DNA from: Burkholderia sp.
Lineage (GTDB): Bacteria; Pseudomonadota; Gammaproteobacteria; Burkholderiales; Burkholderiaceae
DNA: 64,000 bases
Reading direction: 5' to 3'
NCBI GenBank assembly: GCA_040954445.1
Contig: CP144361.1
Coordinates: 1,364,001-1,428,000 of the forward strand
The notes under the pieces were generated by a model. It made no database searches and was not told the origin of the DNA. It worked only from the letters and a program-made list of their open reading frames with translations. The translations under genes and the position numbers were made by a program. Each line of letters starts with the position of its first letter. The stretch's first letter is position 1. Shown here piece by piece: positions 3,222-62,399 of the stretch.

Positions 3222-4315
3222 GGCGTTGTTGCATACATCGAGCGAGATCCGTTGACGTTTACGCAACGGTCGCGGGGCCAGCCTCCTATCAAGTCAGATT
3301 CCAGAGTAACTGCCTAATTTTTGCCAAGAAAATGCGCAAGGAAATACACAAGAAAGGTGAGCCGAAGGCACGCTACCGTGTCAGGAATTGGGCGGCCTAT
3401 AATGAAGGCGTGATCAAACGGGATAACGTAACAATATGGATAGATGAAGCCGTCCTTGCCAGCATACCCGATGCCATACCCACACGTGGTCGCCTGTGTC
3501 TATACGGCGATACGCCTGATTCAGGCATTACTTGGCGTGAAGACCGTCTATCGACTGACGTTGCGCGCCCTGTAAGGTTTTACCAAAAGTCTGCGCGATC
3601 TGGCCTTCCCGAGCTTGACGGTGCAGAATTACACCACGCTCTGTCGCCGGGCAAAAACACTTGATGTCGAACTGCCGATCCTTCGTGATAATGCACCGAT
3701 CCACCTGGTTGTCGACAGCACCGGTCTGAAGGTCTATGGCGAAGGTGAATGGAAGGTGCGTCAGCACGGCTACTCGAAGCGGCGCACGTGGCGTAAAGTC
3801 CATCTCGCGCTCAACGCGAATACGGGTCAAGTGCATGCCGTCGCTCATGACGAATCAAAATGTGGCTGACGGTGACGCTCTGGCCCAGTTGCTCGACCAG
3901 ATTCCACGCGAAGAACAAATCGATGTCATTGGCGGTGATGGTGCCTACGACACCAAGCCATGCCATGCGGCCATTGCTGCACGCAGTGCTATTCCTTCGA
4001 TTCCGCCACGCGAGGGTGCCTTTCATTGACCAGCGGATATGCCCGGCGCGGCGTGGCGTAATGACGCGGTTGATGCAATTGCCAGTGACGGTCGTCGAGA
4101 ATGGAAGCAAGACAGTGGCTACCACCGGCGATCGCTTGCCGAGCATGCGATGTATCGGTTCAAGACCCTCACCGGAAACTGTCTCTGGGTGCGTCACATC
4201 GACGCGCAGGCGACCGAGGTCTCCGTTCGCGTCGGCGTCATCAACCGTATGGTGGACCTCGCTCGTCCGCAATCCGTTCCATCTCGTCCTCGCGCTCGAT
4301 TTATGCAACAACGCC
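3222..4315 (+). mobile_element. IS903-group IS with a frameshifted transposase
   Basis: A near full-length copy. The N-terminal frame breaks at about 3510 (an extra C in the YGDTLIQ region) and again near 3850. A deletion of about 30 bp just before the right end removes the normal transposase stop, leaving the C-terminal frame open into miaB. Confidence 0.88.
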
Positions 4316-7141: not shown

Positions 7142-9365
<2,224 letters not shown>

Positions 9366-9667: not shown

Positions 9668-10350
9668 TATTGATCCACAATTCGTTATCTTGAAATTTAA
9701 AAATCGTTTCTCATGTGAGGGACATGGAAAACAAGACATGAGATCGCTTCTTCCTGAGGTAGGTGAAGAGCGGCGACGTCAGGTGATCAACTTGCACACG
9801 CGCGGCTCTGGACCTACGACGAGATTGCCGAGCATACGAACCTATCGCGCACGAGTGTGTTTGATGTTTGCGTGTGGCTGGATTGCGAGATAAGCCGAGA
9901 GGCGAAGCGGTGAACCCAAGCCGAGCCCTGAGTGAGCAGTAGGAAGTGGAAATTTGCATGCTGTTGCACGGACCAGATGCCGGAGCAGCTGAAGATGTCG
10001 TTCGCGTTGTGGACGTGACATGCCGTGCGGGAGTTGATCCGGCAGCGATGTGGTTTGATACTGACGTTGCAATGTGTCGGCTTGTATCTAGCGCGCTGGG
10101 GCTGTACTCCACAAAGCCGATGAAGCGGGCCTACGAGCAGAGACCGGAAGCGGTGCAGGCATGGCTGAACGAGACGTACCCAGAGATTGCGCGGCGGGCA
10201 AAAGCCTGAAGGCGCGGGAATTTAGTGGGGCGACGAAACGGGGCTGCACTCGGATGATGCACGAGTGCGGTTCTTAAGCCCCCAATGGGCAAGACACCCG
10301 AGCGGCGCGTGGCGAGCTGACGCGAGAAGGCTTTCCGGTGAAGGCGCCGG
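9668..10350 (+). mobile_element. IS630-family 5' part, pseudogene
   Basis: Starts at the left terminal sequence TATTGATCCACAA. A stem-loop (CTCATGTGAGG...CATGAG) leads into transposase codons: helix-turn-helix region TYDEIAEHTNLSRTSVF, then NETYPEIARRAKA and a WGDETGL-type catalytic segment. Several stops and frameshifts break it. It is cut at 10351 by a small IS903 palindrome. This copy shows which part of IS630 the 117-120 bp palindromes came from. Confidence 0.82.
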
Positions 10351-10415
10351 GGCGTTGTTGCATAAATCGAGCGCGATGCCATTACGTCCTCGCGCTCGAT
10401 TTATGCAACGACGCC
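10351..10415. repeat. 65-bp IS903 right-end palindrome
   Basis: Two facing copies of the IS903 right end (about 24 bp each) with a short centre. No 9-bp duplication flanks it. It lies 46 bp upstream of the metN start. Confidence 0.8.
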
Positions 10416-28548: not shown

Positions 28549-28660
28549 CAAATTTATTGATCTGAAATACGTAATCTTGAATTAAGCTGCATAATGTATT
28601 AGTTTATGAGCAAAATAGAGAGCGACGCGCTTTGGTGCTTTGGGGAGACGGATTCCGTTG
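28549..28660 (-). mobile_element. IS630 right-end relic
   Basis: Starts TATTGATCTGAAATACGTAATC and continues through about 100 bp matching the right ends at 2468 and 63889 but more decayed. No coding remains. Confidence 0.65.
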
Positions 28661-28662
28661 TT

Positions 28663-28779
28663 TATTGATCCACAATTTGTGATCTCGAAATTTAAACATC
28701 GTCCCTCATGTCTTGTTGTTCTATGCCCTCACATGAGGGACGATGTTTAAATTTCGAGATCACAAATTGTGGATCAATA
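28663..28779. repeat. IS630-derived palindrome (117 bp) with palindromic flanks
   Basis: Near-perfect inverted repeat with arms TATTGATCCACAATTTGTG. The symmetry continues outside the element: GGATTCCGTTGT on the left mirrors ACAACGGAATCC on the right. Confidence 0.88.
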
Positions 28780-28896
28780 AACAACGGAATCCACTACAGT
28801 GACAATTTTTTATTACGCAGCCATCTTGTCTTTAGTTGCAAGATCTCTAGACTGTTTATCTCAAGCTTTTATCCATGCTATATAGGAGACGATTCC

Positions 28897-32643: not shown

Positions 32644-32716
32644 AGCGTTGTTGCATAAATCGAGCGTGAGGACGCAATGGCATTGCATCCTCACGCTCGA
32701 TTTATGCAACAACGCC
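32644..32716. repeat. 73-bp IS903 right-end palindrome
   Basis: Two facing right ends sharing GTTGTTGCATAAATCGAGCG followed by TGAGGACGCAATG. The second arm is an almost perfect mirror of the first. No 9-bp duplication is seen. Confidence 0.85.
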
Positions 32717-33178: not shown

Positions 33179-34304
33179 GGCGTTGTTGCATAAATCGAGT
33201 GTGAGGATGCAATAGCATCGACGGGCATAATTTTAGGCTATACGAACGGATTGCGGACGAGCGAGGTCCGCCCCCATACGGTTGATGACGCCGACGCGAA
33301 TAGAGACCTCGGTCGCCTGCGAGGCGATGTGACGCGCCCAGAGACAGTTGCCGGTGAGGGTCTTGAACCGATAGATCGCATTCTCGGCAAGCGATCGGCG
33401 GTGGTAGCCACTGTCTTGCTTCCATTCTCGACGACCGTCACGGGCAATTGCATCAACCGCACCATTACGCCACGCCGCACCGGGCATATCCGCTGGCCAA
33501 TGAACGGCACCCTCGCGTGGCGGAATCGAAGGAATAGCACTGCGTGCAGCAATGGCCGCATGGCATGGCTTGGTGTCGTAGGCACCATCACCGCCGATGA
33601 CATCGATTTGTTTTTCGCGTGGAATCTGGTCGAGCAACTTGGCCAGAGCGTCACCGTCAGCCACATTCTGATTCGTCATTAGCGCGGCATGCACTTGACC
33701 CGTATTCGCGTTGAGCGCGAGATGGACTTTACGCCACGTGCGCCGCTTCGAGTAGCCGTGCTGGCGCACCTTCCATTCACCTTCTCCATAGACCTTCAGA
33801 CCGGTGCTGTCGACAACCAGATAGATCGGTTCATTGTCACGAAGGATCGGCAGTTCGACATCAAGCGTTTTTGCCCGGCGACAGAGCGTGGTGTAATTCG
33901 GCACCGGCAAGCTCGGGAAGGCCAGATCGCGCAGACTTTGGGTGAAACCTGGCAGGGCGCGCAACGTTAGTCGATAGACGGTCTTCACGCCAAGTAATGT
34001 CTGAATCAGCGTATCGCCGTATAGACACGGGCGACCACGTGTGGGTATGGCATCGGGTATTCTGGCAAGGAGGGCTTCATCTATCCATATTGTTATGTTC
34101 CCCCGGTTAATTAGGCCTTCATTATAGGCCGCCCAATTCCTGACACGGTAGCGTGCCTTCGGCTCACCTGTCTTGTGTATGTCCTTGCACATTTTCTTGT
34201 CAAAAATTAAGCAGTTACTCTGGAATCTGACTTGATAGGGGGCTGGCCCCGCGATCGTTGCGCGTAAACGTCAACGGATCTCGCTCGATTTATGCAACAA
34301 CGCC
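33179..34304 (-). mobile_element. IS903-group IS, intact (1126 bp)
   Basis: Both 18-bp ends are complete and the transposase frame is open. Flanks differ (CGCGTCCGC versus CCGCTGCAG), so recombination or deletion followed insertion. A 46-bp piece of another copy lies on its left (33133-33178). It separates nuoF from the rest of the nuo operon. Confidence 0.95.
33233..34192 (-). CDS. IS903-group DDE transposase (complete)
   Basis: 319-residue transposase of the IS5 family, IS903 group. Catalytic residues are Asp128 (VVDSTGLK), Asp202 (GGDGAYDT) and Glu270 (HRRSLAENA), with the Y-R-K signature region following. It is full length, with one extra residue (MGADLARPQ) compared with sister copies. 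It could supply transposase in trans to the defective copies and mini-elements in this window. Confidence 0.92.
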   Translation of the reverse strand: MCKDIHKTGEPKARYRVRNWAAYNEGLINRGNITIWIDEALLARIPDAIPTRGRPCLYGDTLIQTLLGVKTVYRLTLRALPGFTQSLRDLAFPSLPVPNYTTLCRRAKTLDVELPILRDNEPIYLVVDSTGLKVYGEGEWKVRQHGYSKRRTWRKVHLALNANTGQVHAALMTNQNVADGDALAKLLDQIPREKQIDVIGGDGAYDTKPCHAAIAARSAIPSIPPREGAVHWPADMPGAAWRNGAVDAIARDGRREWKQDSGYHRRSLAENAIYRFKTLTGNCLWARHIASQATEVSIRVGVINRMGADLARPQSVRIA

Positions 34305-36117: not shown

Positions 36118-36240
36118 TTCAATCTTTTCGGGTGGATTCCTGTTCCCTTGGGACGCTTATTGATCCGAAATTGATGATCAATGCTTGTGCATTTTCCTTT
36201 CTGGGTTTGATACCTCACCCCTTTAGGCGAGGAACTTCAT
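36118..36240. repeat. Intergenic repeat copy D, inside the nuo operon
   Basis: Inverted orientation: TTCAATC...TTCGGGTGGATTCC through GGTTTGATACCTCACCCC to GAGGAACTTCAT. It matches the reverse complement of copies A and B except for an inserted 26-bp palindrome at 36158-36183. Confidence 0.8.
36158..36183. repeat. 26-bp IS630-type palindrome inside repeat D
   Basis: TATTGATCCGAAATTGATGA followed by TCAATG. It is absent from the equivalent position of the other repeat copies, which read GACGCTCACTTTTGC. Confidence 0.75.
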
Positions 36241-39545: not shown

Positions 39546-40668
39546 GGCGTTGTTGCATAAATCGAACGTGAGGACGCCATGGCATCAGACGGGCATAATT
39601 CAGGCGATGCGAACGGATTGCGGACGAGCGAGGTCCGCCATGCGGTTGATGACGCCGACGCGAACGGCGACCGAGGTCGCCTGCGCGGCGATGTGACGCG
39701 CCCAGAGACAGTGGCCGGTGAGGTTCTTGAACCGATACATCGCATTCTCGGCAAGCGATCGCCGGTGGTAGCCACTGTGTTGCTTCCATTCTCGACGACC
39801 GTCACGGGCAATTGCATCAACCGCGCCATTACGCCACGCCGCACCGGGCATATCCGCTGGCCAATGAGCGGCACCCTCGCGTGGCGGAATTGAAGGAATA
39901 GCACTGCGTGCAGCAATGGCCGCATGGCATGGCTTGGTGTCGTAGGCACCGTCACCGCCGATGACATCGATTTGTTCTTCGCGTGGAATCTGGTCGAGCA
40001 ACTTGGCCAGAGCGTCACCGTCAGCCACATTCTGATTCGTCATTAGCGCGGCATGCACTTGACCTGTATTCGCGTTGAGCGCGAGATGGACTTTACGCCA
40101 CGTGCGCCGCTTCGAGTAGCCGTGCTGGCGCACCTTCCATTCACCTTCTCCATAGACCTTCAGACCGGTGCTGTCGACAACCAGATGGATCGGTTCATTG
40201 TCACGAAGGATCGGCAGTTCGACAGCAAGCGTTTTTGCCCGGCGACAGAGCGTGGTGTAATTCGGCACCGGCAAGCTCGGGAAGGCCAAATCCCGCAGAC
40301 TTTGGGTGAAACCTTGCAGGGCGCGCAAGGTCCGTCGATAGACGGTCTTCACGCCAAGTAATGCCTGAATCAGCGTATCGCCGTATACACACGGGCGACC
40401 ACGTGTGGGTATGGCATCGGGCATTCTGGCAAGGACGGCTTCATCTATCCATATTGTTACGTTCCCCAGGCTGATCAGGCCTTCATTATAGGCCGCCCAA
40501 TTCCTGACACGGTAGCGTGCCTTCGGCTCACCTTTCTTGTGTATGTCCTTGCGCATTTTCTTGGCAAAAATTAGGCAGTTACTCTGGAATCTGACTTGAT
40601 AGGAGGCTGGCCCCGCGACCGTTGCGCGTAAACGTGACTAGCTTTCGCTCCATTTATGCAACAACACC
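39546..40668 (-). mobile_element. IS903-group IS, intact
   Basis: 1123 bp with both ends (the left end has two substitutions) and a complete transposase. Its right-end variant (CGAACGTGAGGACGCCATGG) is shared only with the copy at 44423-45543, so the two are sisters. Confidence 0.93.
39600..40556 (-). CDS. IS903-group DDE transposase (complete)
   Basis: 318 residues, from [20 protein letters not shown] to ARPQSVRIA. The three catalytic acidic residues are in VVDSTGLK, GGDGAYDT and RRSLAEN. It is one of two transposases in the window that are uninterrupted from start to the normal C-terminus. Confidence 0.92.
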   Translation of the reverse strand: MRKDIHKKGEPKARYRVRNWAAYNEGLISLGNVTIWIDEAVLARMPDAIPTRGRPCVYGDTLIQALLGVKTVYRRTLRALQGFTQSLRDLAFPSLPVPNYTTLCRRAKTLAVELPILRDNEPIHLVVDSTGLKVYGEGEWKVRQHGYSKRRTWRKVHLALNANTGQVHAALMTNQNVADGDALAKLLDQIPREEQIDVIGGDGAYDTKPCHAAIAARSAIPSIPPREGAAHWPADMPGAAWRNGAVDAIARDGRREWKQHSGYHRRSLAENAMYRFKNLTGHCLWARHIAAQATSVAVRVGVINRMADLARPQSVRIA

Positions 40669-43992: not shown

Positions 43993-44018
43993 TATTGATC
44001 CGAAATTCGTGATCAATA
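43993..44018. repeat. 26-bp IS630-type palindrome
   Basis: TATTGATCCGAAATTCGTGA then TCAATA. It abuts an IS903 right-end piece exactly at the TA in GGGCATAATTTC. Confidence 0.78.
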
Positions 44019-44068
44019 TGCCCGTCGATGCCATTGCGTCCTCGCGCTCGATTTATGCAACAACGCCT
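44019..44068 (+). mobile_element. IS903 right-end tip
   Basis: TGCCCGTCGATGCC through the terminal repeat ending at 44068; 50 bp only. Confidence 0.75.
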
Positions 44069-44422: not shown

Positions 44423-45543
44423 GGCGTTGTTGCATAAATCGAGCGAGATCCATTGATGTTTACGCGCAACAGTCTCGGGGCCAGATCCCTATCAAGTCAG
44501 ATTCCAGAGTAACTGCCTAATTTTTCCAAGAAAATGCGCAAGGACATACACAAGACAGGTGAGCCGAAGGCCAGCTACCATGTCAGGAATTGGGCGGCCT
44601 ATAATGAAGGCCTGATCAACCGGGGGAACGTGACGATATGGATAGATGAAGCCGTCCTTTCCAGAATACCCGATGCCATACCCACACGTGGTCGCCCGTG
44701 TCTATACGGCGATACGCTGATTCAGGCATTACTTGGCGTGAAGACCGTCTATCGACGGACCTTGCGCGCCCTGCAAGGTTTCACCCAAAGTCTGCGCGAT
44801 TTGGCCTTCCCGAGCTTGCCGGTGCCGAATTACACCACGCTCTGTCGCCGGGCAAAAACGCTTGATGTCGAACTGCCGATCCTTTGTGACAATGAACCGA
44901 TCCATCTGGTTGTCGACAGCACCGGTCTGAAGGTCTATGGGGAAGGTGAATGGAAGGTGCGCCAGCACGGCTACTCGAAGCGGCGCACGTGGCGTAAAGT
45001 CCATCTCGCGCTCAACGCGAATACAGGTCAAGTGCATGCCGCGCTAATGACGAATCAGAATGTGGCTGACGGTGACGCTCTGGCCAAGTTGCTCGACCAG
45101 ATTCCACGCGCAGCACAAATCGATGTCATCGGCGGTGACGGTGCCTACGACACCAAGCCATGCCATGCGGCCATTGCTGCACGCAGTGCTATTCCTTCGA
45201 TTCTGCCACGCGAGGGTGCCGCTCATTGGCCAGCGGATATGCCCGGTGCGGCGTGGCGTAATGGCGCGGTTGATGCAATTGCCCGTGACGGTCGTCGAGA
45301 ATGGAAGCAACACAGTGGCTACCACCGGCGATCGCTTGCCGAGAATGCGATGTATCGGTTCAAGACCCTCACCGGCCACTGTCTCTGGGCGCGTCACATC
45401 GCCGCGCAGGCGACCGAGGTCGCCTGCGCGGCGGCGTCATCAACCGCATGGCGGACCTCGCTCGTCCGCAATCCGTTCGTATCGCCTGAATTATGCCCGT
45501 CCGATGCCATGGCGTCCTCACGTTCGATTTATGCAACAACGCC
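44423..45543 (+). mobile_element. IS903-group IS (inner), perfect 9-bp target duplication
   Basis: CCTGAATCA at 44414-44422 is repeated at 45544-45552, directly outside the terminal repeats. Recent insertion into an older IS903 copy. Confidence 0.95.
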
Positions 45544-54187: not shown

Positions 54188-54878
54188 CTTCGCGTGGAAT
54201 TGGGTCGCGCAACTTAGCCAGAGCGTCACCGTCAGCCACATTCTGATTCGTCATTAGCGCGGCATGCACTTGACCCGTATTCGCGTTGAGCGCGAGATGA
54301 ATTTTACGCCAGGGGCGCCGCTTCGAGTAGCCGTGCTGGCGCACCTTCCATTCACCTTCTCCATAGACCTTCAGACCGGTGCTGTCGACAACCAGATGGA
54401 TCGGTTCGTTGTTGCGAAGGATCGGCAGTTCGATATCAAGCGTTTTGCCAGGCGACAAAGCGTGGTGTAATTCGGCACCGGCAAGCTCTGGAAGGCTAAA
54501 GCGCGTAGACTTTTGAAACCTTGCAGGGCGCGCAACGCCAGTCGATAGACGGTCCTCACGCCAAGTAATGCCTGAATCAGCGCATCGCCGTATAAACACG
54601 GGCGACCACGTGTGGATATGGCGTCGGGTATTCTGGCAAGGACGGCTTCATCTATTATCCATATCGTCACGTTCCCCCGGTTGATCAGGCCTGCACATTA
54701 TAGGCCGCCCAATTCTTGACATGGTAGCGTGCCTTCGGCTCACCTGTCTTGTGTATGCTCTTGCGCATTTTCTTGGAAAGAATTAGGCCGTTACTCTAAA
54801 ATCTGACTTGATAGAGGCTGGCCGGCGAGCGTTGCGCGTAAACGTCAATGGCTTTCGCTCGATTTACGCAACAACGCC
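54188..54878 (-). mobile_element. IS903-group 5' part
   Basis: Minus-strand left half, ending at 54861-54878. The transposase start region is interrupted by small indels (for example an extra TTA in TCTATTATCC). Confidence 0.87.
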
Positions 54879-55266
54879 TCGACACGGTGACAAATCATGG
54901 CCAGGTGCGCTGGAAAGTATTTGAAGGCGCGATGAACGCAGACGTCCTGCTCAACTTTTTGAAGAGACTGATCAAAGACATGCGCAGCAAGCAAGTGTTT
55001 CTGATTCTCGACAACCTGAAGGTGCATCACGCCAAGCCGGTCAAGGCGTGGTTGGCTGAGCACGGCGACAAGATCGAGGTGTTCTACCTTCCCTCCTACA
55101 GTCTGGAGCTCAATCCAGACGAGATGCTCAACGCGGATCTGAAAGCGAACGTGACGAAGCAGGCTCCGGCGCGAACCAAAGGGCATCTCAAGAAATCCGG
55201 CATCAGCCGTCTGCGTCTTCTCCAAAAATCACCAAAGCGTGTCACTCTCTAATTGCGGATCAATAT
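54879..55266 (+). mobile_element. IS630-family 3' fragment
   Basis: Plus-strand C-terminal part: QVRWKVFEGAMNADVLLNFL, KQVFLILDNLKVHHAK and YLPSYSLELNPDEMLNADLK, the DDE-type end with catalytic Asp and Glu. Open for about 120 codons, then a remnant terminal sequence (GGATCAATA). No start. Confidence 0.82.
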
Positions 55267-56446: not shown

Positions 56447-56718
56447 ACCGCACGGGCCCGACAGCAATTGACCTGATCATGGCGTTGTTGCATAAATCGA
56501 GCGAGATCCGTTGACGTTTACGCGCAACGGTCGCGGGGCCAGCCTCTATCAAGTCAGATTTTAGAGTAACGGCCTAATTCTTGCCAAGAAAATGCGCAAG
56601 AGCATACACAAGACAGGTGAGCCGAAGGCACGCTACCATGTCAAGAATTGGGCGGCCTATAATGCAGGCCTGATCAACCGGGGGAACGTAACAATATGGA
56701 TAGATGAAGCCGTCCTTG

Positions 56719-56880
56719 GGCGTTGTTGCATAAATCAAGCGCGAAGACGCAATGGCATCCACGGGCATATTGATCACGAATTTCGGATCAATAATTTCAG
56801 GCGATATGAACGGATTGCGGACGAGCGAGGTCCGCAATCCGTTCCGTTGCGTCCTCACACTCGATTTATGCAACAACGCC
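56719..56880. mobile_element. 162-bp IS903 mini-element (two right ends) with 9-bp target duplication
   Basis: It has complete IS903 ends at both sides, both derived from the right end, in inverted orientation. CCGTCCTTG precedes it (56710-56718) and follows it (56881-56889), which is the target duplication size of IS903. It codes for nothing, so it must have been moved by a transposase acting in trans. Confidence 0.92.
56768..56793. repeat. 26-bp IS630-type palindrome nested in the mini-element
   Basis: Intact IS903 ends read GGGCATAATTTCAGG. Here the TA is replaced by TA-TTGATCACGAATTTCGG-ATCAA-TA. Removing 24 bp restores the IS903 sequence exactly, as expected for insertion with TA duplication. 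Confidence 0.85.
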
Positions 56881-57859
56881 CCGTCCTTGCCAGAATACCC
56901 GATGCCATACCCACACGTGGTCGCCCGTGTCTATACGGCGCGATACGCTGATTCAGGCATGACTTGGCGTGAAGACCGTCTATCGATTGACATTGCGCGC
57001 CCTGCAAGGTTTCACCCAAAGTCTGCGCGCTCTGGCCTTCCCGAGCTTGCCGGTGCCGAATCACCACGCTCTGTCGCCGGGCAAAAACGCTTGATGTCAA
57101 ACTGCCGATCCTTCGTGACAAGGAACCAGATCCATCTAATTGTCGACAGCACCGGTCTGAAGGTTTATGGAGAAGGTGAATGGAAGGTTGCACCAGCACG
57201 GCTACTCGAAGCGGCGCATGTGGCGTAAAGTCCATCTCGCGCTCAACGCGAATACGGGTCAAGTGCATGCCGCGCTAATGACGAATCAGAACGTGGCTGA
57301 CGGTGACGCTCTGGCTAAGTTGCTCGACCAGATTCCACGCGAAGAACAAATCGATGTCATCGGCGGTGATGGTGCCTACGACACCAAGCCATGCGACCAT
57401 TGCTGCACGCAGTGCTATTCCTTCGATTCCGCCACGCGAGGGTGCCGTTCATTGGCCAGCGGATATGCCCGGTGCGGCGTGGCGTAATGGCGCGGTTGAT
57501 GCAATTGCCCGTGACGGTCGTCGAGAATGGAAGCAAGACAGTGGCTACCACCGGCGATCGCTTGCGATGTATCGGTTCAAGACCCTCACCGGCAACTGTC
57601 TCTGGGCGCATCACACCGACTCGCAGGCGAACCCGAGGTCGCCGTTCGCGTAGGCGTCATCAAAAAACCGCATGGCGGACCTCGCTCGTCCACAATCCGT
57701 TCGTTTCGCTGAAATTATGCCTGTCGATGTCACTGCGTCCTCACGCTCGATTTATGCAACAACGCCCATTTTCTTTGCCATGCACGGAATTTACGAGTTG
57801 GCGAAGATATTGCACTTCAGATTTGAGGCCACTGGAATTCGATAACGGGCGCGGTGCTC

Positions 57860-61918: not shown

Positions 61919-61920
61919 CC

Positions 61921-61942
61921 TTGATCCCGAATTGCGGATCAA
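61921..61942. repeat. 22-bp IS630-type palindrome
   Basis: TTGATCCCGAATTGCGGATC then AA. Smallest member of the palindrome series. It abuts the truncated IS903 start region. Confidence 0.65.
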
Positions 61943-61980
61943 CACTGACTTGTTCGCACGCCACGGTTCCCGGATCACGT

Positions 61981-62253
61981 ATGAAAACCCCTGAGCAGTC
62001 CGCCCCGTCCTCCTTGCCCAGCCAGTCCGAATCGCCGCTCGTGCCTGTCCCCAGCGACGTTCCGTTTGAGCCGAAGTCGATCCTCGCACAATTGCCGCAC
62101 CTGCCTGGCGTGTATCGCTACTACGCCGCTGGCGGCGCGGTGCTCTACGTTGGCAAAGCACGTAACCTGAACAAACGCGTCTCGAGTTACTTCAACAAGA
62201 CCCAGCCATCACTGCGAATCACGATGATGGTCACGCGCATTCGCAAAATCGAG
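61981..62253 (+). pseudogene. uvrC: UvrC N-terminal remnant
   Basis: UvrC makes the two incisions in nucleotide excision repair. The first 91 residues are present, including the GIY-YIG region ([23 protein letters not shown]) and TRIRKIE. At AAATCGAG the sequence switches into an IS903 right end and then an IS630-derived palindrome. The UvrB-interaction and RNase-H-like domains (about 600 residues) are gone, so the product cannot function in repair. Reading continues into a short IS-derived tail ending at 62301. Confidence 0.88.
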
Positions 62254-62281
62254 CGTGAGGACGCCATGGGATCAACGGGCA
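62247..62281 (-). mobile_element. IS903 right-end piece at the uvrC break
   Basis: AATCGAGCGTGAGGACGCCATGG...ACGGGCA. The first bases are shared between uvrC and IS903. It is cut at the GGGCA-TA site by the palindrome at 62282. Confidence 0.75.
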
Positions 62282-62399
62282 TATTGATCTGCAATTCATA
62301 ATCTTGAAATTTAAAAATCGCCCCTCATGCCTCGTTTTTTCATGGTCATTACATGAAGGAAGATTTTTCAATTTCAAAATCAAGAATTGCGAATCAATA
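62282..62399. repeat. IS630-derived palindrome (118 bp)
   Basis: Arms TATTGATCTGCAATTC...GAATTGCGAATCAATA with central CCTCATGCC...GGTCATTACATGAAGG. Moderately decayed. Confidence 0.83.

What the first reader, a model, noticed from the sequence alone, without database searches (positions are those of the whole stretch)
56481..57766. Three-level nest: IS903 > 162-bp IS903 mini-element > 26-bp IS630-type palindrome
A 162-bp unit bounded by two inverted IS903 right ends sits inside an IS903 transposase gene. It is flanked by a perfect 9-bp duplication (CCGTCCTTG at 56710-56718 and 56881-56889), so it moved as a unit, in trans. Inside it, a 26-bp palindrome occupies a TA (56768-56793), and removing 24 bp restores the known IS903 sequence. 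This gives the order of events. It shows that an element made of two copies of one end is mobile, and that a 26-bp piece resembling two fused IS630 tips also inserts with TA duplication. I know of no named element this small.
Basis: partly seen in the sequence, partly recalled or inferred. Interest (0 to 1): 0.82.

Follow-up and report, generated by a model that had tools for sequence, protein, structure and literature searches.

The report
Mini-transposon made from one end
A 162-base "jumping gene" fragment in a beetle-symbiont bacterium appears to consist of two mirror-image copies of the same end of a larger transposon, carries a remnant of a second transposon inside it, and is found in many places in the genome.

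Summary
The nest is real at the stated coordinates. A 162-bp unit (56719-56880), made of two inverted right ends of an IS5-family, IS903-like element, interrupts a copy of that element and has a perfect 9-bp duplication. A 26-bp TA-bounded palindrome (56768-56793) sits in its left arm.

One duplication could not show that the 162-bp form moved. Protein searches support it: 32 of 44 protein records examined show the same two-right-end junction, 16 with the 26 bp and 16 without (a 138-bp form), running into different flanks. 27 of the 32 have a longest contig whose length matches a replicon of LvStB_2023, the Burkholderia symbiont of Lagria villosa. The unit is best read as a multicopy MITE; its other copies were seen as proteins, not DNA.

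The claim that the 26 bp inserts by itself is not supported, though not excluded. It is best read as a collapsed IS630-type MITE that hitchhiked.

New here: the MITE's centre coincides with a natural hairpin of the IS right end (GCGGAC-7-GTCCGC), and the IS630-type MITEs, apparently two left ends, are centred on the strongest hairpin of that end. Both fit birth by fold-back copying of one end; this is inferred.

The parts
56481..57766 (+). Host copy of the IS5-family (IS903-like) element, interrupted by the unit; no full-length transposase frame
   Evidence: transposase family named on an intact-length copy (39600-40556) by NCBIfam NF033579 and Pfam PF13737/PF01609
56710..56718 (+). Left copy of the 9-bp target duplication CCGTCCTTG
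56719..56880 (.). 162-bp mini-element: two inverted IS right ends
   Evidence: same junction in 16 protein records with the 26 bp and 16 without
56719..56816 (+). Left arm: right-end sequence read from the tip inward, with the 26-bp palindrome (24 bp extra) in it
56768..56793 (.). 26-bp TA-bounded palindrome TATTGATCACGAATTTCGGATCAATA, read as a collapsed IS630-type MITE
56817..56835 (.). Centre: GCGGAC-GAGCGAG-GTCCGC, the natural hairpin of the IS right end, after which the sequence turns back (AATCCGTTC instead of CATGCGG)
56836..56880 (-). Right arm, with a 29-bp gap relative to ordinary right ends
56881..56889 (+). Right copy of the 9-bp target duplication CCGTCCTTG
43993..44067 (-). Partial second copy: unit bases 1-75 (96% identical), cut off exactly at the end of the 26 bp
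39600..40556 (-). Intact-length IS5-family transposase ORF, possible trans-acting enzyme (another at 33233-34192)
28663..28779 (.). 117-bp IS630-type MITE, apparently two left ends; its palindrome extends 13 bp into both flanks (28650-28792, 62-bp perfect arms)
62282..62399 (.). 118-bp IS630-type MITE at the same TA of another IS right-end fragment

Best explanation
The unit is a non-autonomous mini-transposon (MITE) of an IS5-family, IS903-like element. It consists of two inverted copies of the right end and was most likely moved in trans by that element's transposase, which makes 9-bp duplications. Shown: the structure, the duplication here, and recurrence of the same junction in many contexts (as protein records). 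Inferred: trans action. Its birth was probably fold-back copying of one right end at the natural hairpin GCGGAC-7-GTCCGC, with a 29-bp loss in one arm (inferred). The 26-bp palindrome is most likely what remains of an IS630-type MITE that entered a TA of the left arm and collapsed between GATC repeats (inferred); it hitchhiked in the 162-bp form, while a 138-bp form lacks it.
For: 9-bp duplication and 16 empty target sites. 32 of 44 protein records match a junction pattern (up to 2 substitutions allowed), with 15 different right flanks for the 162-bp form and 14 for the 138-bp form. 27 of those 32 have a longest contig of 1,892,292, 551,157 or 59,773 bp, matching LvStB_2023 (passages). P0121 has the unit after another stretch of IS sequence. 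A natural IS hairpin lies at the centre. IS630-type MITEs share one centre, which is the strongest hairpin of the presumed IS630 left end. In the 26 bp the two tips meet at a shared GATC.
Against: Copies other than the window's were seen only as translated proteins, so their 9-bp duplications are untested. Eight of the 14 flanks of the 138-bp form begin with leucine, so the first flank codon is not random; this may be a target preference (two IS duplications in the window begin CCT) or part of the element. Three other two-tip palindromes in the window lack a duplication. The 26 bp and the 29-bp gap do not follow one simple tree (P0121, P0139, P0142, IS 3222-4315). A unit with a full IS630-type insert was not seen.
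Confidence: 0.8

Rival explanations
1. The two-right-end unit arose by a deletion between two neighbouring inverted IS copies (as in an inverted composite transposon such as Tn903, recalled), not by fold-back; it was mobile afterwards all the same.
For: The two arms differ at several bases and by the 29-bp gap, and an IS copy with the same gap exists at 3222-4315. The 6-bp shared sequence at the centre would serve a deletion equally well.
Against: The centre falls on a close hairpin (7-base loop), and the IS630-type MITE centre on another (19-base loop). Arm differences can be later changes.
Confidence: 0.38
2. The 26-bp palindrome is itself a mobile element that inserts with TA duplication.
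For: Two other 26-bp palindromes of the same build lie in the window, 36158-36183 (3 mismatches) and 61919-61944, and TATTGATC occurs 24 times against 1.4 expected. The protein searches used right-end queries and could not have found 26-bp copies elsewhere, and the genome is not held, so only 64 kb was searched for independent copies.
Against: In the window the exact 26 bp is found only at one TA of the right end. The two others differ in sequence and are not TA-bounded on both sides. Palindromes of 40, 49 and 117-120 bp with the same tips form a graded series, as expected of collapsed MITEs. A full 118-bp MITE sits at the same TA of another right-end fragment. A scan of genome contigs for this build gave one hit in an unrelated genome.
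Confidence: 0.2
3. A longer element bounded by two right ends inserted here and shrank to 162 bp in place.
For: A single duplication cannot exclude it.
Against: The same centre and the same 29-bp gap recur with different flanks.
Confidence: 0.05
4. Segmental duplication or recombination between IS copies explains the 9-bp repeat and the copies.
For: P0130 and P0146 on the plasmid-length contig share one flank, so some flank duplication occurs; P0139 and P0142 suggest exchange between right ends.
Against: The unit follows different stretches of the IS in the window and in P0121, and 15 and 14 flanks are distinct. The 2020 draft of this symbiont was reported to lack recA and other recombination genes (PMC7042692 passages).
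Confidence: 0.04

Closest known systems
IS903 group of the IS5 family (parent element)
   Same: NCBIfam IS5 transposase match (321 bits); 18-base tip GGCGTTGTTGCATAAATC resembles the IS903 tip (recalled); 9-bp duplications, as listed for IS5/IS903 elements in a table of PMC3281130 (passages)
   Different: The unit has no transposase and two right ends instead of a left and a right
Bacterial MITEs, for example MITEPsy1 of Pseudomonas syringae (100 nt, 18-nt repeats, 4-nt duplication; PMC3189936 passages)
   Same: Short, no gene, tips of a resident IS, target duplication, several copies, some inside other mobile elements
   Different: Here both ends are copies of one IS end, the inside is a palindrome, and a remnant of a second MITE is nested within
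MITEs of the IS630/Tc1-mariner group
   Same: Most of the 117-120-bp elements and the 26-bp piece are bounded by TA and share the tip TTGATCCRCAATT with an IS630-family remnant at 54848-55265 (DDE_3 86.7 bits; NCBIfam IS630 85.7 bits, under its cut-off of 100)
   Different: The 117-120-bp elements look like two left ends; the left end itself (9668) is assigned by sequence, with only a weak HTH_33 match downstream (22.9 bits, cut-off 25)
Fold-back inverted duplications (for example PMC3907307, human genome; search listing and start of abstract only)
   Same: Inverted duplication by a fold-back mechanism
   Different: There large chromosomal pieces; here a mobile mini-element

Membership tests
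MITE of an IS5/IS903-type element | Short element without a transposase gene | tested here: met
   162 bp; only short frames run over it
MITE of an IS5/IS903-type element | Terminal inverted repeats equal to those of a resident IS | tested here: met
   18-base tips identical to many IS tips in the window
MITE of an IS5/IS903-type element | Target duplication of the parent's length (9 bp) | tested here: met
   9 of 9 at this copy; 2 of 10 full-length IS copies have 9 of 9 and one has 8 of 9
MITE of an IS5/IS903-type element | Several copies at different sites | tested here: met
   32 of 44 records, 15 and 14 different flanks; seen as proteins, not as DNA
MITE of an IS5/IS903-type element | Moved in trans by the parent transposase | not testable with these tools
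   Intact-length transposase ORFs at 33233-34192 and 39600-40556; no assay
MITE of an IS630-type element (the 26-bp piece) | TA duplication at insertion | tested here: met
   Filled site has TA on both sides; of 11 sites without insert 10 have one TA
MITE of an IS630-type element (the 26-bp piece) | Tips shared with an IS630-family element | tested here: met
   IS630-family remnant ending in TTGATCCGCAATT at 55265; presumed left end at 9668, weakly supported by protein domains
MITE of an IS630-type element (the 26-bp piece) | Independent copies of the same piece at different sites | tested here: inconclusive
   Exact copies only at one TA in 64 kb; two diverged 26-bp palindromes elsewhere; rest of the genome not searchable

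The most novel reading that the evidence does not exclude
MITEs can be born by fold-back copying of one IS end at a natural hairpin near that end. It happened at least twice in this genome, in unrelated families (IS5-type right end, IS630-type left end), each time giving a palindromic element with two like ends that the resident transposase then amplified. Loss of DNA repair genes in the symbiont would favour both the birth and the later collapse to tiny palindromes.
Probability: 0.33. Interest if true: 0.65.

Novelty: new variant of a known kind. Interest (0 to 1): 0.45.

Why it matters
How MITEs arise from insertion sequences is not settled. A genome with two families whose centres coincide with natural hairpins of one end, with longer and shorter forms side by side, makes a specific birth mechanism testable. 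It also means that some 'hypothetical proteins' recorded for this symbiont are MITE sequence, which bears on its gene and pseudogene counts.

Tried and rejected
Own-genome search and file: not held. Relatives: not available without a genome handle. Scan of genome contigs for 26-bp palindromes of this build: one hit, in an unrelated Syntrophaceae genome; by my own estimate chance gives about 0.5. Plasmid collection: 30 records with IS matches, the best-covering one 75.4% identical over 87%; no near match for 44534-45543; no match for the 117-bp MITE. Phage collection: one short match. A 12-bp palindrome at 2475-2486 looked like the end of the collapse series but is part of a longer single tip, so I dropped it. 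Literature searches: (no paper); some lists were capped (15 of 24, 15 of 47, 12 of 81). In the listings and the passages read, none describes this element. Waterworth et al. 2020 (PMC7042692, passages) mention many copies of a '155-bp hypothetical gene'; this may be the mini-element, but I could not test it. In one search the identity of the 26-bp form to my composite MITE is by construction and is not used. On checking I withdrew a claim that the palindrome at 28650-28792 cannot come from transposition: insertion at the TA of an existing palindrome would give it too. I also lowered the claim about the 26-bp piece, because the protein searches could not see copies outside IS right ends, and raised that rival from 0.15 to 0.2.

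Full report
Where it is. The window is very probably part of chromosome 1 of LvStB_2023, the Burkholderia symbiont of the beetle Lagria villosa. The window's own LeuB (P0001) is listed with a longest contig of 1,892,292 bp, the length given for LvStB_2023 in PMC11542224 (passages), which also reports a 0.55-Mbp second chromosome, a 59.77-kbp plasmid and an assembly from long reads only. PMC7042692 (passages) reports, for a draft assembly of this symbiont, many transposase genes, a multicopy IS5 transposase, a truncated uvrC, a broken polA and missing recA and ruvABC.

The observation. All three levels exist at the stated places. The unit 56719-56880 is 162 bp and bounded by two IS right ends in inverted orientation, with CCGTCCTTG on both sides. 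The window holds 16 uninterrupted versions of the target site, so the repeat is a target duplication. The 26-bp palindrome 56768-56793 adds 24 bp at a TA; 11 right-end sites in the window lack it, 10 of them with the TA. The unit folds on itself far better than its shuffles (z -8.4, 0 of 200 as good).

What one duplication can and cannot show. It shows that something bounded by these two tips inserted, not that it was 162 bp long then. Copies elsewhere are needed, and the genome is not held. I used the reading frames that happen to cross the unit as probes of the protein database.

Copies elsewhere. The forward frame found one protein, P0121, on a 551,157-bp contig: IS sequence in another frame (compare ORF 33238-33666), then the unit's tip, the 26 bp (HIDHEFRI) and the two-right-end junction (ERGPQSV), but followed by VRIA as in a right end without the 29-bp gap. 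The reverse frame found 43 proteins at E up to 1. Of these 43 plus P0121, 32 match the junction pattern (up to 2 substitutions): 16 with the eight extra codons IDPKFVIN (or HIDHEFRI) and 16 without. Of the other 12, seven carry the 26 bp without a recognised junction, some because the record starts too late, and five have neither. After the tip the sequences run into different flanks: 15 distinct of 15 readable for the 162-bp form, 14 of 14 for the 138-bp form; eight of the 14 begin with leucine. By longest contig, 27 of the 32 match LvStB_2023 replicon lengths (12 with the 26 bp, 15 without). Of the 43, 42 are named as MAG proteins of Burkholderia sp. or B. gladioli with the tags V3Q69, VB140 or E5299; P0162 is an ordinary IS end in Burkholderia lata. 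So the claim that a two-right-end element moves as a unit is well supported, though duplications at the other copies are unseen.

Results that do not fit neatly. P0139 and P0142 read as ordinary IS right ends with the 26 bp; P0144 and P0145 have the 26 bp with another centre. The IS copy at 3222-4315 has the 29-bp gap. P0130 and P0146, both on a 59,773-bp contig, share one flank but one has the 26 bp and the other does not. Some exchange between right ends must have happened, or some steps happened twice.

The 26-bp piece. TATTGATC occurs 24 times in the window against 1.4 expected. These are tips of an IS630-type family: MITEs of 117-120 bp (25263, 25821, 28663, 42347, 62282, and 21010; four of the six TA-bounded on both sides) and palindromes of 49 bp (49585), 40 bp (2814, 50936) and 26 bp. 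In the 26-bp form the two tips meet at a shared GATC, in the 40-bp form at GAA, in the 49-bp form at about two bases (my reading). This is what deletion between short repeats in a palindrome leaves. A full 118-bp MITE sits at the same TA in another right-end fragment (62282). In the window the exact 26 bp is found only at this TA. So it most likely entered as a MITE and shrank; a mobile 26-bp form is not excluded.

How such elements may be born. The 117-120-bp MITEs look like two copies of one end: the sequence at 9668 follows them through their loop and then diverges. That 9668 is an IS630 left end rests on this tip and on a weak winged-helix match downstream (HTH_33, E 6.4e-5, under its cut-off; nothing in NCBIfam). 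Their centre is the strongest hairpin of that end, TCTCATGT-19-ACATGAGA; 15 of 300 shuffles have a stem as long. The centre of the 162-bp unit is GCGGAC-7-GTCCGC, the tightest but not the longest of three hairpins with stems of 6 or more (loops up to 40) in the first 130 bases of the IS right-end consensus; 159 of 300 shuffles have such a stem. So the hairpins themselves are ordinary or nearly so; their coincidence with the two centres is the point. At 28650-28792 the palindrome runs 13 bp past the MITE into both flanks, with 62-bp perfect arms; copying of a folded strand gives this, but so would insertion at the middle of an existing palindrome. Of seven palindromes with perfect arms of 16 or more and loops up to 60 in the window, each lies in IS or MITE sequence by position; one shuffled window had none. 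A deletion between two inverted IS copies remains possible.

Verdict. The finding is a real and apparently multicopy MITE of an unusual build: two right ends with a nested remnant of another MITE.

Noticed in passing
28650-28792: A 117-bp IS630-type MITE whose palindrome continues 13 bp into both flanks (62-bp perfect arms): copying of a folded strand in place, or insertion into an existing palindrome.
   Followed up: partly
P0130 and P0146 (contig of 59,773 bp): Two proteins share nearly the same flank, but one carries the 162-bp form and the other the 138-bp form of the mini-element.
   Followed up: no
43993-44067: A partial copy of the unit that stops exactly at the end of its 26-bp palindrome, then runs into unrelated DNA.
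   Followed up: partly
62230-62399: A reading frame that I take for uvrC (by eye; a truncated uvrC is reported in PMC7042692) is cut by an IS right-end fragment lacking its tip, followed by a 118-bp IS630-type MITE.
   Followed up: partly
7937-8033, 10351-10415, 32645-32716: Three further short palindromes of IS tips without 9-bp duplications; by eye the joins share 2-3 bases.
   Followed up: partly
3222-4315: A long IS copy whose right end has the same 29-bp gap as the right arm of the mini-element.
   Followed up: partly
45400-45433: A perfect palindrome with 16-bp arms inside an IS copy, possibly a hairpin made perfect by strand switching.
   Followed up: no
Protein records such as V3Q69_04495, V3Q69_01960, E5299_00459: Records named hypothetical protein that are translated mini-element sequence; may relate to the '155-bp hypothetical gene' named in PMC7042692.
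   Followed up: no
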